NCBI RefSeq assembly: GCF_030294945.1 | Contig: NZ_AP018448.1 | Location: 2,790,001-2,854,000, forward strand | Source: Streptomyces graminofaciens | Lineage (GTDB): Bacteria; Actinomycetota; Actinomycetes; Streptomycetales; Streptomycetaceae | DNA: 64,000 nt | Reading direction: 5' to 3' | Shown: one piece after another, positions 30,512-36,500 of the stretch | Numbering within the stretch: position 1 is the stretch's first letter | Layout of the letters: each line of letters starts with the position of its first letter | Position numbers and translations under genes: made by a program | The notes under the pieces: model-generated | The model's input: the letters and a program-made list of their open reading frames with translations, nothing else | The model's database searches: none | What the model was told of the DNA's origin: nothing

Positions 30512-33500
30512 TCATGCCCTCCAGGACTTGAACTCCCGGAGCCGGTCCAGGTCCACGACGGCCTCAAGCTGATCGGCGTCCACGTCCAGGTCGCCGCCGA
30601 CCGCCGCCACCAGGCGCCGGGCGGGGAGGTTGCGGGGCGTGTGTTCCGCGGTCAGGCGTACGGCTGTGCAGCCGAGTTCGGCGGCGTGGTCGGCCAGCCA
30701 CTGGAGGAGGCGTTCCTCCACTCCGCGTCCCAGGGCGCGGCAGCTGAGCATCCAGGCCAGGACGTCGAGGGTGTCGCCGTCCTGGCGTACCGCGAGCAGT
30801 CCGATCTGGCCGTAGTCGCCGAACCGGTCGCGGGCGGACGCGGTCCAGACCTCGCCGTCCTTCCGCAGCCGGTCCAGGTCGCCGCCGTCGGCGGATCGGG
30901 CCCGCAGGGTGAACTGGTTGGTGCGGCGGATGAGTTGGGCGGCCCGCTCCGACCCGTCGTCCATCAACGGGCTTATGTCGACCTCCAGTTCCAGCCGCTC
31001 CAGGAACTCCTCGAAGCTCGCCTGTTCGCGTACGGCGTCCCGGTCCCGTTCCGTGCGGTAGAACTCGGCGCGCAGCGTGTCCTCCGCCGTGGCCGCCCGG
31101 GGGACGAGCGGCCACAACCGCCTTACGAACTGCTCCAGTTCGGCGGCCGGCGGGCAGGTCACCGAGAGGACCTGCGGGAGGGCGGCCCGCATGGAGGCGA
31201 TCTCCACGGGGTTGTCGTCGAGGTAGAGGAAGGAGTCCAGGCCGAGGCCCAGGTCGCGGGCCGCCTCGGCGAGGCGGTCGGCCTTGCGACCCCAGGTCGC
31301 GGATACCACGCTGAAGTGCTCCATGCGCAGCAGGCTGTCCCGGCGGTCCAGGACTGCCTTCACGGTCGCCTCGTCGTTGTTGCTGACCAGGACCAGGGGG
31401 GCCCCGGCGGCCCGCCATTGGAGGAGACGGCGGGCGAGCAGGCGACGGGGGCCGCCCAGGTCGACGCCGTCGGCTCCGGCCTCGCCCGCGATACCGCTCC
31501 AGAGGGTCTCGTCGCCGTCGACGGCGATCACCTTCGGCGGGGTGCGGCGTACGGCCTCGACGACATCGGTGAGGGTGAGGGCCACGGCCGCCTGGAACTC
31601 CGGGGTGAACGGCAGGTGTGCCAGTTCCTCGGTGCGTGGGTCGAAGCGGTCGGCGACGGTGTGGTCGCGGGTCCAGTCGTCGGGGTGGACGAGGGCGATG
31701 CCGGGGACTTCGGCGAGGTCGACGGCCAGGTCGGCGGCCCAGCGGTCCAGCCGCTCGTCGACGTGGGCGGTCGGGAGAAAGCCGACGATCAGCGGGGTGC
31801 CGGTGCGTGCGGCGGCCGAGCGCAGGGCGCCCGCGTACTCCACGCGCAGGTCGACGAGCGTGGCGTCGTCCACCGGCTTGAACCTCTCCAGGTCCGTGCC
31901 GCGCAGCAGCACCACACCCAGGTCGGCCGCCGAGCGGGCGAAGACGCCCGAGGGGTCCTGCAGGGCGGTGAGGGCCTGGTGGTACGGGGCCTCCAGGACC
32001 GTCGTCGGGCCGTCGCCGGGGGTCGTGTCGCCCAGCGCGGCCTCGCACATGAGGGGCAGGTCGCCGAGGGCGAAGGTGGCGGCGAGGGCGACCCGGGTGG
32101 TCGCGGCGGTCGCGGTGCCGGTCTCCGGTTCCGCGTGCCAGGTCGCGGCCTCGGGGTCGGCGGCGGCCTCGGCGAGCAGGCGCAGATACTCCTCGCCGAG
32201 GGCCGCGCAGTCCTCGGCGTCGATGATGTCGAGGTTGTGGTCCAGCCGTACGCGACCGGCGTCCGGCGTCACGGTGACCATCAGGTCCACGTCGGAGTAG
32301 CCGGTGCCGACGGGCAGCACCTCCAGGGCGGAGAGCCTCGTCGACGCGACGCGCACATAGTTGAAGTAGACCTCGACGAGGGGGGCGTTGGGCTGGTACA
32401 GGCCCTGGGCGGCCAGTTCGGAGAGGGCGTCGGAGAACATCGCGCCCTTCTCCAGCACCCGTTGCAGGCGGCCGTCGGTGCGGCGCAGTGCCTCGGCGAT
32501 CGGCTCGCCGGGCGTGGCCTGGGCCGGGAACGGCACGGGCACTCCGAAGAAGCCGATGGCGGCGGGCGCGTCGACATGGATGCGGGTGTCGACGGGCACG
32601 GCGACGACGAACTTCTCGCGCCGCCGCTTACGGGCGAGCAGGACGCCGAGGGCGCCCAGACAGAAGGCCGCCGGGGTGACGGCGAGCCGTCCGGCGCGTG
32701 CGGAGACCTGCCGCATCAGTCCTTCGGGCATGTCGAGGGTGAGGCTGCCGGCGCGGTAGGTCCTGGCCGCCGGGCGCGGCCGGGTCAGGGTCAGTTCGAG
32801 CCGCTTGCTGCCCTCGAACTCGCGGCGCCACTCGGCGGACCCGTCACCCCGACTCGCCGTACGGTCCGGCTGCGAGGTGAGCAGCAGGTCGATGTCGCGG
32901 TTGGTGGTGGTGCCGTCGAGGCGTACGCCGGAGAGTTCGGCGTCGATCTCGCCGGTGACCAGCAGCAGCGACTGGAGGTCGCTGACGGCGTGGTGGGCGC
33001 CGAAGACGAGGACCTGGCCGTGTGCCGTACCGCCGTCGAGGAGTTCGAACCGCCACAGCGGGGCGCTCGCGAGGTCGAAGGGCGGTTCGAGGAGTTCCCG
33101 CAGCCGCCGTTCCACGTCGAGGTCCGTGCCGGGGTCCGACAGGTCGGTCCAGCGCAGGAGGGCCGCGGCCGGGTCCCGGTCCACGCGGAGCTGTCGTTCC
33201 CGTCCGTCTGCGGTGACGACGGCGGTACGCAGGGCGGCGTGGCGGGCGGCGAGCCGGGTGACGACCTCGGTGAGGCGTTCCGGTGTGGTCGGTGTGGTGA
33301 GGCGGACGGCGAGTCCGATGGCGTGCGCCGCGCCGGGCACGCCCTGCTGGGCGGTGCGCAGCAGGCGTACGACGTCACGGGTGACCGGCCGGAAGTCGGT
33401 CTCGGGGAGCACGGTGTCGGCGCAGGGCAGTGCCGCGTCCTCTCGCACGGCCGCCGGGCCGCCCTGTTCGATCAGCGCGGTGCGCAGTGCGCCGGTCAGG

Positions 33501-36500
33501 GAGCGGACGTCGGCGGCCGAGAACACGGCCGAGGTGGGCAGATCGGCGCCGAGGTCGCGCAGGAACGTGTTGCGCAGGTGGACGATCATCAGGGAGTCCA
33601 GCCCGAGTTCCTTGAGCGCGGTGCCGGGGCCGATGTCCGCGATACCGCCGGCGACCGCGCCGACCGCCGTACGGACGTAGTTCTGGAGCAGTTCGGTCTG
33701 TTCCTCCTCGCCGGGGGCGGCGAAGAACCGGGCGACCAGGTCACGGGTGCCGGGGTCCGCGTCCCGGGCGGGTACGAGGTCGCGCAGGGCGGGGCGGGTG
33801 CGGGCGGCGGCCGGGTCGGCGGCGAGGGCCTGCCAGTCCAGGGCGGCGGGTACGAGCTGACGGCGGCCGGAGCCGAGGACGCGGTCGAAGAGTTCGCCGC
33901 CCTCCTCCGGGCTGAGGGCGATCAGGCCCTGCCTGCTGCTCGTCGCCGCCGTGGCGTCGGTCGCCGCGGCCATGCCGGCGTCGGCCCAGGCGCCCCAGTC
34001 GAGGCTGAGCGCCGGGCGCCCGGTCAGGGACTGGTGGTGGGCCCAGGCGTCCAGGAAGGCGTTGGCGGCGCTGTAGTGGCTCTGGCCGGGGGAACCCAAC
34101 AGACCGGCGACCGAGGAGAACAGCACGGAGGTGCGTGCCTCCGGTACCAGTTCGGTGAGCAGTGCCGTGCCCAACACCTTGGGTGCGAGGACCTTGAGGA
34201 CGCGCTCCCGGGTGAGGTTGGGGAGGGTCGCGTCGTCGAGGACACCCGCCGTGTGGACGACGCCGTCGATCGGGCCGAGGTCGTGGCGCAGCCCGGCGAG
34301 GGCGGCGGTGAGACCGTCGCGGTCGGTGACGTCGGCGCGGGCGTGGGCCACGGTGACGCCGCGGTCCCGCAGCCCGTCGATCCACTGCTCGGCCTCCGCG
34401 CCCAGGGCACCCCTGCCGAGCAGGGCGAGACGGCGTACGCCTCGGCGGACGAGCCGTTCGGCGACGACGCGGGCGAGGCCGCCGAGGCCGCCGGTGATCA
34501 GGTAGGCGCCTTCGGGGGCGGCTGGGGTGTCTGGGGCGTCTGTGTCCGGGCGGGTGCGGGTGAGCCTCGGGACGAGCCGTTCGCCGCCGCGCAGGGCGAG
34601 TTGCGTCTCGTCGTCGTCCGGGTGGCTCAGCTCGTGCCAGAGGGCGTCCGTGCCGGTGCCGGCGGGGTCGGAGTCGTCGGAGGGCAGGTCGATGAGTGTG
34701 GTGCGCAGCTCCGGGTACTCCTGGGCCACGGCGAGGCCGAAGCCCCAGCCCAGGGCCTGCTGAGGGTGCGTCACCTCGGCGCTGCCGCCTGCTGCTTGGC
34801 TGCCCCGGGTGACGAGGAAGAGGCGCGGTGCCCGGGCCCGGCTGCCTTCGGTGGGGGCGCCCCAGGACCGTTCGGTGAGGGCCCGTACGAGGTGCAGGGT
34901 GCTCAGGCAGCACAGACGGGCCGCGTCCTCGGCGGCGTCGGCCGAGTCGATCGCGGGGGCGTCCAGGCCGAAGAGCTGGACGACGCGCTCGGGCGGCCCG
35001 TCCGGGAACGCCTCGTCGAGGAGACGTACGAGGTGCCGCGGGTTCCCCGGGTCGATGACGTACCGGCCGAGGCCGTCCAGGCCGTACTCGATGCCCTTGC
35101 GGGCGAGGACGTGCGGCACCTGGCCGAGCCTGTCGGCGAGTTCGGCGCCGACCCCGGTGTCGTCGGTGAGGACGAGCCAGGAGCGCCGGGCGGGCGGTTG
35201 CTGGGCGTCGGTGCGGCGGGCGGGCTGCCAGCGCAGCTCCATCAGGGCCCGGTCGAGCGGGGAGAGGGCGGCCAGTTCGAAGCCCTCGATCTCCGCGACG
35301 AGGCGTTCCTCCTCGTCGTAGAGGCAGATGTCCAGGGTGATCGAGTCGCCCTCTTGGGAGCGGAGGCGGCAGGCCGTCCACGTGGGTGTGGTGCCGGTTC
35401 CGGTGAACCGCAGCCGTCCGAGTCCGGCGGGCACGAACGGCCTGCCGGTGGGCGCGTCGGCGGGGAGCGCGGCCACGTGGAAGGCCGCGTCGAGGACCGC
35501 CGGGTGCAGCAGGTGCCCGGCGCGCGGGCGCTCGGTGAGGCGGCCGAGAGCGGTGGAACGTTCGTACCGGGCTTCGGTGAGGCCCTGGAAGGCGGGGCCG
35601 TAGTCGATGCCCGCGGCGGCGAGGCCGGCGTAGACGGTGGATGCGTCGGTGGAGGTGGTGCAGTTCTCGCGCAGGGTGGATGGGGTGAGGTGCTGGGGGA
35701 AGGCCGGGGTGAGGTCCTGTGTGGCGGCCGGGGTGAGTTCTTGTGCGGCGGCCGCTGCGAGGTCGGCTCCGGCGGGTTCGATGCGTCCGCCCGCGTGGTG
35801 GGTCCAGGGGGCCCGGCGGGGTCCGGATGTCCGGGAGGCGATGGTGAAGTCGCGGCTGCCGTCGGTGTCGGCGCGGCCCAGGACCAGTTGCAGTTCGACG
35901 GCGGTTTCGGGCTCCAGGCGCAGCGGGGCCTCGAAGCGCACCCCGGCCAGCCGGGCCTCGCCGCCGACGTCCTGGAGGCTTGCCGCCGCCGAGAGGGCCA
36001 TTTCCAGGAACGCGGCGCCCGGCATCCACACCTCTCCGGAGATCCGGTGGTCGGCGAGATAGGCGAAGCGGGTGTCGCGCAGGTCGAGCCGGGTCTGGAA
36101 GACATGCCGATCGGAGGCGTCACTGGGCTCGACGTGGGTGTCGAGCAGCGGCGAACCCGCGCTTGCTCCGGTGGGGAGTGCGGGTGCCGGTGACAGCCAA
36201 TGGCGTTCTCGGGCGAAGGCATACGTGGGCAGGTCCGCGCGGTCGCCGCCGGGGTACGTCACCGCCCAGTCGGGGTCGTACCCGCTCACGTACAACTTGC
36301 CCAGGCCGTGCAGTAGTTGGCCGTACCCGCCGTGGGTGCGGCGGAGCGATCCGATGCTCACGGCGTCGATGCCCGCCGTCGCCGCGACCGCCTCGATGGA
36401 CGGGCCGAGCGAGGGGTGCGGGCCGAGCTCCACGAAGTGGCGGTAACCGTCGTCCAGCATGCGCCGGATCGTGTCGGCGAAGCGGACCGGTTCGCTCAGG

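What the first reader, a model, noticed from the sequence alone, without database searches (positions are those of the whole stretch)
30512..33590. PKS ending in a condensation domain fused to a full FkbH-like glyceryl-transfer domain, without a thioesterase
PKS B ends ACP-C-FkbH. The C domain keeps HHxxxD (4044-4049) and the FkbH part keeps all HAD motifs plus the GNAT-like end. FkbH proteins normally load a glyceryl unit from 1,3-bisphosphoglycerate onto a carrier protein. The only other carrier near is the ACP of the reductase protein (Ser112). I infer that FkbH charges that ACP, the C domain joins the tetraketide acyl group to the glyceryl unit, and the reductase releases the product. This would be an acyl-glycerate or aldehyde-type small molecule, possibly a signal. 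I know of no described pathway with exactly this order.
Basis: partly seen in the sequence, partly recalled or inferred. Interest (0 to 1): 0.85.

Follow-up and report, generated by a model that had tools for sequence, protein, structure and literature searches.

The report
Polyketide glycerol-ester release cassette
A Streptomyces gene cluster builds a short branched fatty chain and, judging by its genes, most likely joins it to a glycerol-type unit and releases it by reduction; the same parts sit together in many actinomycetes, and one such cluster has been published, with its release enzyme apparently mislabelled.

Summary
In detail: PKS B ends KS-AT-DH-KR-ACP-C-FkbH without a thioesterase, and the catalytic motifs checked are intact. 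"No described pathway with this order" is wrong: the foxicin PKS (PMC5318452, 2017) ends ACP-C-FkbH and works with a carrier protein, which its authors proposed FkbH charges. In 69 of 69 named loci with enough downstream DNA (80 fetched), C-FkbH is followed by ACP-reductase-X and an alpha/beta hydrolase. In 199 same-genus genomes, all 22 with the X domain are among the 24 with C-FkbH. HHxxxD, the main HAD residues and the FkbH cysteine are invariant in 78 of 78 aligned loci. In the foxicin producer, FoxBIII matches a carrier-thioester reductase, not PCP-TE, and FoxBI is closest to fatty-acyl-AMP ligases. The window is a variant: KSQ loading, two fully reducing modules, reductase encoded first. 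C-FkbH also occurs in 24 Nocardia loci. The unit resembles vioprolide C-FkbH-T and, except for its predicted enoyl donor, malleicyprol BurF. Ester bond and product are inferred, not shown.

The parts
30524..32095 (-). FkbH-like glyceryl transferase/phosphatase domain at the C-terminus of PKS B (SCR with the conserved Cys at 30737-30745; DxDxT at 31505-31519)
   Evidence: TIGR01686 364.9 bits, cut-off 146.65; Cys and DxDxT invariant in 78 of 78 aligned loci; coordinates
32144..33391 (-). NRPS-type condensation (C) domain, HHAVSD at 32978-32995
   Evidence: PF00668 78.4 bits, cut-off 30.6; HHxxxD invariant in 78 of 78
33488..33685 (-). last ACP of PKS B, proposed acyl donor carrier
   Evidence: PF00550 32.2 bits
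33977..38857 (-). module 3: KS 37574-38857, AT 36254-37201 (FASH motif), DH 35324-36142, KR 33977-34510; DH and KR motifs complete
38933..45028 (-). module 2: KS-AT(YASH)-DH-ER-KR-ACP
30512..45124 (-). PKS B coding sequence (likely ATG at 45124)
   Evidence: 4870-aa P0121
45213..54743 (-). PKS A: loading module KSQ (TGQSSS)-AT(YASH)-ACP, then module 1 KS-AT(HAFH)-DH-ER-KR-ACP; start inferred
54857..56005 (-). alpha/beta hydrolase, homologue of the FoxEI-position hydrolase, conserved cassette member
   Evidence: PF00561 39.2 bits; homologue present in 69 of 69 testable loci
58332..58517 (-). ACP of the reductase protein (Ser112 codon 58437-58439), proposed glyceryl carrier
   Evidence: PF00550 39.5 bits; Ser112 invariant in 30 proteins
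57168..58091 (-). thioester reductase (R) domain, YDKSK at 57594-57608
   Evidence: TIGR01746 259.4 bits; best solved matches are the myxalamid R domain 4u7w/4w4t
56358..57140 (-). X domain: no Pfam match at E <= 0.001; predicted eight strands plus a long C-terminal helix
56355..58772 (-). ACP-R-X protein, homologue of FoxBIII

Best explanation
This is a split glyceryl-adding and reductive-release module. PKS A and B make a tetraketide acyl chain: a propionyl starter from a KSQ loading module, two fully reduced extensions and one DH-KR extension. By AT motifs this would be about 2,4-dimethylnon-2-enoyl. The FkbH domain takes the glyceryl unit of 1,3-bisphosphoglycerate and loads it on the ACP of the separate ACP-R-X protein. 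The C domain then moves the acyl chain from the last PKS ACP onto a hydroxyl of that glyceryl unit, making an O-acyl-glyceryl thioester. The R domain reduces the thioester and releases an O-acyl-glyceraldehyde, or an O-acyl-glycerol if it reduces twice. X and the alpha/beta hydrolase act on or after this product. Shown: the domains, intact motifs and near-obligate co-occurrence. Inferred: substrate, bond, number of reductions, product and the roles of X and the hydrolase.
For: C-FkbH, then ACP-R-X, then hydrolase in 69 of 69 named loci with enough downstream DNA, of 80 kept from 116 relatives. All three parts also occur in the window and in 12 further regions that I chose. X domain in 22 of 199 same-genus genomes, all 22 among the 24 with C-FkbH. 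Catalytic residues invariant in 78 of 78 aligned loci. Ser112, Tyr389 and Lys393 of the reductase protein invariant in 30 proteins, the window's and 29 chosen from 120 listed of 740. FoxBIII of the foxicin producer is PCP-R-X. Precedents in print: vioprolide and corramycin FAAL-ACP-C-FkbH-T, where a C domain joins an acyl chain to glycerate (passages of PMC8949500 and PMC10099666; shown or proposed there, not here); and BurF, whose C domain esterifies and whose Red domain releases an aldehyde in vitro (passages and conclusion of PMC12304814).
Against: I found no assay of any enzyme of this cassette. Foxicin A, the only product that I found tied to such a cluster (by one single-crossover mutant), carries the polyketide as an amide on an aminoquinone and shows no obvious glyceryl ester, so the glyceryl unit is lost, hidden in the ring, or the model is wrong there. 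In this window the reductase gene lies some 23 kb from the C domain, so partnership rests on homologues. C-domain subtype and AT specificity were judged by motif only. Genome G063 has C-FkbH but only an ACP-containing remnant where ACP-R-X should be. A passage says the vioprolide FkbH was shown to activate D-3-phosphoglycerate, so the phosphoglycerate used is not certain.
Confidence: 0.7

Rival explanations
1. The glyceryl ester is only a temporary handle. The C domain parks the acyl chain on glyceryl-ACP, and the conserved hydrolase later cuts it off or moves it to another acceptor, such as the aminoquinone amine in foxicin. This can be true together with the first steps of the best explanation.
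For: The hydrolase is present in 69 of 69 testable loci. Foxicin A has the chain as an amide without a glyceryl ester. In vioprolide maturation the fatty acyl part is removed by hydrolysis (passage of PMC10099666).
Against: It does not explain why a reductase rather than a thioesterase goes with the cassette. No quinone-type genes stood out among the window genes scanned.
Confidence: 0.25
2. As in malleicyprol BurF, the released aldehyde cyclises by Knoevenagel condensation to a butenolide.
For: Same functional order: PKS ACP, ester-forming C, FkbH-related part, T, Red (passages of PMC12304814).
Against: That ring closure needs a beta-keto acyl chain (chemical reasoning). The last module here has DH and KR with complete motifs, predicting an alpha-methyl enoyl chain with no acidic methylene.
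Confidence: 0.08
3. The published foxicin model: an A domain activates an amino acid, FkbH charges the PCP, and a thioesterase releases the product by hydrolysis.
For: Proposed in PMC5318452 (passages).
Against: FoxBIII of that strain matches a thioester reductase, 242.8 bits against a cut-off of 213.35, with no thioesterase among its Pfam matches. FoxBI scores best among single-function models with fatty-acyl-AMP ligases (428.5 bits, below that model's cut-off of 775), while the amino-acid adenylation model scores 141.6 against 317.4. The only AMP-binding ORF among those scanned in the window (24948-26750, other strand) is closest to acyl-CoA ligase models, with no cut-off reached among the 25 shown.
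Confidence: 0.05
4. FkbH makes a hydroxymalonyl or methoxymalonyl extender together with the acyl-CoA dehydrogenase and 3-hydroxyacyl-CoA dehydrogenase genes that lie next to it (28081-30205, plus strand).
For: Those two enzyme types occur in methoxymalonyl gene sets (recalled); they adjoin the end of PKS B here.
Against: No separate carrier or O-methyltransferase turned up among the 18 window ORFs apart from the reductase protein; the 3-hydroxyacyl-CoA dehydrogenase frame is interrupted; all PKS modules have their own AT; the acyl-CoA dehydrogenase has no family member in the 12 other regions (the interrupted gene was not in that list).
Confidence: 0.04

Closest known systems
Foxicin (fox) cluster, Streptomyces diastatochromogenes Tue6028 (PMC5318452: outline, abstract, sections 21, 24, 26 and passages seen)
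   Same: PKS ending ACP-C-FkbH; separate carrier-reductase-X protein (FoxBIII); adjacent hydrolase (FoxEI position). Seen on the producer's own genome, L096 and L190.
   Different: By the paper, the fox PKS starts with an ACP and has two DH-KR modules, and FoxBI, FoxEI and FoxEII are neighbours; FoxBI looks FAAL-like here. The window has KSQ loading, three modules of which two carry ER, order R-X, hydrolase, PKS A, PKS B, and no FoxBI or FoxEII family member at the thresholds.
Vioprolide and corramycin FAAL-ACP-C-FkbH-T modules (passages of PMC8949500 and PMC10099666)
   Same: C-FkbH-T order with glycerate loaded by FkbH and joined to an acyl chain by an ester-forming C domain.
   Different: There the module starts an NRPS and continues by peptide elongation; here it ends a PKS and release is by a reductase.
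Malleicyprol synthetase BurF (passages and conclusion of PMC12304814)
   Same: PKS ACP, C, FkbH-derived NEX part, T, Red; ester formation and reductive release shown in vitro.
   Different: BurF keeps only the N-terminal extension of FkbH, takes another alpha-hydroxy acid by way of a transfer protein, and its product cyclises to a butenolide; here FkbH is complete and the donor is predicted to be an enoyl chain. Sequences were not compared.
Tetronate and methoxymalonyl FkbH systems (recalled; tetronates mentioned in a PMC12304814 passage)
   Same: FkbH-type glyceryl-ACP formation.
   Different: Those use separate FkbH and ACP proteins and FabH-like condensation or oxidation to an extender unit; here FkbH is fused behind a C domain.

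Membership tests
C-FkbH / ACP-R-X release cassette (the conserved core of fox clusters) | C domain with HHxxxD fused to a complete FkbH domain | tested here: met
C-FkbH / ACP-R-X release cassette (the conserved core of fox clusters) | Separate ACP-thioester reductase-X protein | tested here: met
C-FkbH / ACP-R-X release cassette (the conserved core of fox clusters) | Nearby FoxEI-type alpha/beta hydrolase | tested here: met
C-FkbH / ACP-R-X release cassette (the conserved core of fox clusters) | Biochemical activity: glyceryl loading, ester formation, reductive release | not testable with these tools
   needs proteins and mass spectrometry
Foxicin-type biosynthetic gene cluster as published | FoxBI-type ligase next to a PKS that starts with an ACP | tested here: not met
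   window PKS A starts with KSQ-AT-ACP; no F03 family member in the window (35% identity over 60% of length). An acyl-CoA-ligase-like ORF of another kind lies at 24948-26750
Foxicin-type biosynthetic gene cluster as published | Second esterase FoxEII | tested here: not met
   no F05 family member in the window (same thresholds, so a distant homologue could be missed)
Foxicin-type biosynthetic gene cluster as published | Sugar-metabolism genes foxGI-III and acetyltransferase foxA | not tested
   not searched for; none stood out among the ORFs, which did not cover 1-15.9 kb
BurF-type butenolide synthetase | Reductase-terminated C/T module after a PKS ACP | tested here: met
   (split over two proteins)
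BurF-type butenolide synthetase | Beta-keto acyl donor (no ketoreduction in the last module) | tested here: not met
   DH3 and KR3 motifs complete; activity itself not tested
BurF-type butenolide synthetase | FkbH N-terminal extension (NEX) homologous to that of BurF | not tested
   no sequence comparison made
Vioprolide-type starter module | FAAL-ACP before C-FkbH-T and NRPS elongation after it | tested here: not met
   KSQ loading and PKS modules before it, reductase after it
Methoxymalonyl-ACP (FkbGHIJK) gene set | Stand-alone FkbH with its own ACP, two dehydrogenases and O-methyltransferase (set recalled) | tested here: not met
   FkbH is fused to PKS B; 3-hydroxyacyl-CoA dehydrogenase frame interrupted; no methyltransferase among the ORFs
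Tetronate-type release | FabH-like enzyme joining glyceryl-ACP to a beta-keto chain | tested here: inconclusive
   none among the ORFs, but 1-15.9 kb was not scanned

The most novel reading that the evidence does not exclude
C-FkbH | ACP-R-X plus hydrolase is an unrecognised portable release unit shared by FAAL-PKS, modular PKS and probably NRPS/PKS hybrid lines across several actinomycete genera, including many Nocardia. It makes a family of small O-acyl-glyceraldehydes or polyketide monoacylglycerols, possibly signals, and it is the complete form of the architecture of which BurF keeps a reduced remnant.
Probability: 0.4. Interest if true: 0.7.

Novelty: new variant of a known kind. Interest (0 to 1): 0.5.

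Why it matters
If right, a common actinomycete cluster type has been read wrongly. Its last enzyme reduces rather than hydrolyses, its first is probably a fatty-acyl ligase, and a glyceryl unit must pass through the pathway although it is not visible in foxicin A. The cassette would be a ready-made, testable way to end a polyketide as an acyl-glycerol aldehyde or alcohol. It also gives a concrete place to ask how reductases that follow ester-forming C domains evolved. The window offers a version with a simple, predictable chain.

Tried and rejected
Butenolide formation as in BurF was considered and set aside because module 3 has complete DH and KR motifs. Methoxymalonyl-type supply was considered because of the neighbouring dehydrogenase genes, and rejected (see rivals).

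Search of 296 genomes of the class: matches above 55% identity came from 6 genomes, all of the window's genus; 5 others matched at 33-41%. The later named scan found Nocardia and others, so must not be read as absence elsewhere. In one search, 39 of the 63 matching genomes match only at 33-39% identity, mostly over FkbH alone; I did not count them as C-FkbH.

Papers on FkbH with Nocardia, FAAL, reductase or ester-forming terms, on foxicin (listing only apart from PMC5318452) and on abenquine (listing only) showed me no biochemical study of this cassette. Only open-licence PMC papers are searched.

It also shows FoxBI, FoxBII and FoxBIII side by side in the producer.
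Full report
What is there. The window is G000:C1:2790001-2854000 of an 11.6-Mb genome. Its genus is Streptomyces by inference: the same-genus genome G175 is identical at this locus to a named Streptomyces record, L123. Four minus-strand genes form the unit: ACP-R-X (56355-58772), an alpha/beta hydrolase (54857-56005), PKS A (45213 to about 54743) and PKS B (30512-45124). PKS A is KSQ-AT-ACP-KS-AT-DH-ER-KR-ACP and PKS B is KS-AT-DH-ER-KR-ACP-KS-AT-DH-KR-ACP-C-FkbH. 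The first KS carries TGQSSS, Gln in place of the active-site Cys, which by general knowledge marks a decarboxylating loading module. AT motifs are YASH (loading), HAFH (module 1), YASH (module 2) and FASH (module 3). DH and KR motifs of module 3 are complete. The chain predicted from this, about 2,4-dimethylnon-2-enoyl, is inference by motif.

Observation check. Condensation PF00668 78.4 bits (cut-off 30.6), FkbH TIGR01686 364.9 bits (cut-off 146.65), reductase TIGR01746 259.4 bits (cut-off 213.35). The finding is real.

Is the partner right? Three results bear on it. First, the window and 12 regions that I chose from the matches all have C-FkbH, ACP-R-X and the hydrolase. Second, a scan of named genomes kept the best 80 of 116 relatives. 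Of these 80 loci, 69 have at least 3.2 kb after FkbH (11 end too near a contig border); 69 of 69 have ACP-R-X there and 69 of 69 the hydrolase, and none is fused to the PKS. Third, in 199 genomes of the genus, matches of at least 55% identity to C and FkbH occur in 24 genomes (counted by me from the rows) and the X domain in 22; all 22 lie within the 24. The two others are G001, a 79% complete assembly, and G063, where only an ACP-containing ORF follows FkbH, with no R, X or hydrolase match in the 10.8 kb after it. These genomes are related, so the counts are not independent events. The scans score few candidates per genome (4, 13), so copy numbers are lower bounds.

Constraint on catalysis. 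In 78 of 80 named loci (L142 and L161 left out because C and FkbH fall on different reading frames), HHxxxD, the two HAD aspartates and threonine of DxDxT, Lys731, the DDN motif and Cys912 (numbers in the 987-aa C-FkbH piece) are all invariant; the SNND serine is Thr in 10 of 78 and its first Asn is His in 1. In 30 aligned reductase proteins (the window's and 29 of the 120 listed, 740 found), Ser112, Tyr389 and Lys393 are invariant. Roles of these residues are recalled family knowledge. The R domain's best solved matches, by sequence and by fold, are the myxalamid R domain.

What is known. The foxicin paper (PMC5318452; outline, abstract, sections 21, 24, 26 and passages seen) describes FoxBII as ACP-KS-AT-DH-KR-ACP-KS-AT-DH-KR-ACP-C-FkbH, FoxBIII as PCP-TE and FoxBI as an A domain, with similar clusters in 21 further Streptomyces strains and none detected in other actinomycete genera. 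Its authors proposed that the glyceryl unit is transferred onto the carrier of FoxBIII. The named scan brought in Streptomyces sp. Tue6028 (L096), the strain number of the foxicin producer. There a FoxBI-FoxBII-FoxBIII row is seen directly (L190). A 946-aa translation of its FoxBIII matches PP-binding and NAD_binding_4 and TIGR01746 at 242.8 bits, with no thioesterase match at E <= 0.01 in Pfam. Its FoxBI (found with a homologue, 79% identity) scores best among single-function models with fatty-acyl-AMP ligases (428.5 bits for PRK05850, below that model's cut-off of 775); the amino-acid adenylation model scores 141.6 against a cut-off of 317.4. So two published domain calls look wrong, and FoxBI most likely loads the starter acid. 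In line with this, the FoxBI family (two members tested) stands directly upstream in 8 of 9 regions whose first detected PKS domain is an ACP (exception G175) and in 0 of the 4 others: the window, G180 and G196, which have Gln at the active site of the first KS, and G067b. In one Nocardia locus tested (L137, of 24 Nocardia loci), the ligase is fused to the front of the PKS.

Distribution. Of the 80 named loci, 53 are Streptomyces, 24 Nocardia, and one each Amycolatopsis, Catenuloplanes and Actinacidiphila (counted from titles); 22 of the 24 Nocardia loci have enough downstream DNA and show the whole set. This goes beyond the Streptomyces-only statement of the 2017 paper. On a tree of 86 C-FkbH sequences, the window groups with S. 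puniciscabiei P0122 and Streptomyces sp. NPDC004539 P0123 (100% SH-aLRT for the three) inside a 48-row clade (100%) that also holds the foxicin producer (quick method, no bootstrap). The last PKS module of the window is close to that of the fox-type copy in the same genome (KS 85%, AT 72% identity), while the front end differs. The simplest reading is that a fox-type end was joined to another PKS front; this is inference. The genome carries this second, fox-type cluster near 11.44 Mb.

Precedent for the chemistry. Vioprolide and corramycin have FAAL-ACP-C-FkbH-T with a glycerate unit, joined in vioprolide by an ester bond (passages). BurF uses C, an FkbH-derived NEX part, T and Red; ester formation and reductive release to an aldehyde were shown in vitro, and its authors find it conceivable that BurF lost the other FkbH subdomains (passages and conclusion). 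The cassette here has the complete FkbH in the same functional place, but the last module should deliver an enoyl, not a beta-keto, chain, so the Knoevenagel ring closure is not expected. I therefore favour release of an O-acyl-glyceraldehyde or O-acyl-glycerol.

What remains open. Foxicin A (C18H22N2O5) carries its polyketide as an amide and has no obvious glyceryl ester. Either the glyceryl unit enters the ring, or the ester is a temporary handle cut by the hydrolase, or the link is indirect. X has no assigned function: eight predicted strands with a long helix, mean pLDDT 83, no clear structural match.

Verdict. The window is a new variant, and the useful additions are the corrected reading of FoxBI and FoxBIII, the strict cassette and its spread to Nocardia and other genera.

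Noticed in passing
window 29241-30205 (+): 3-hydroxyacyl-CoA dehydrogenase gene with an interrupted reading frame: the N-terminal part reads in one frame and the C-terminal part in another, changing near 29690. Could be decay or a sequencing error.
   Followed up: partly
window 30229-30531 (+): Short ORF matching only the start of a zinc alcohol dehydrogenase (PF08240, below cut-off), a likely gene remnant just before the end of PKS B.
   Followed up: no
window 60640-61461 (-): Beta-hydroxyacid dehydrogenase family gene (closest to tartronate semialdehyde reductase and 3-hydroxyisobutyrate dehydrogenase models, below their cut-offs), next to a LuxR-type regulator (59157-60437). It could act on a three-carbon unit but has no family member in the 12 other regions.
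   Followed up: no
G000:C1:11444976-11447936 (L039-L041): The same genome holds a second, fox-type cluster with FoxBI-family gene, PKS-C-FkbH, ACP-R-X and both hydrolase families.
   Followed up: partly
L189 (G063:C105): Natural C-FkbH locus where ACP-R-X is cut down to an ACP-containing ORF; no X match in that genome at E <= 1e-15.
   Followed up: partly
L133, L135, L139, L148, G067b: A separate clade in which the cassette sits after a different PKS: KS only 37-40% identical to module 3 in four of them, no KS in the stretch held for L148. In G067b a roughly 3000-aa ORF with two weak C-type matches lies nearby, pointing to an NRPS hybrid.
   Followed up: no
L174:5067-6713, L175:4712-6670 (-): ORFs overlapping, in another frame, the open frame of GMC-type oxidoreductase matches contain a stretch weakly similar to the X domain (E 1.2e-4 and 0.15 in a 307-ORF set); a possible clue to X.
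   Followed up: partly
window 15923-16924 (-): TIR-domain protein (PF13676 45.6 bits) outside the cluster.
   Followed up: no
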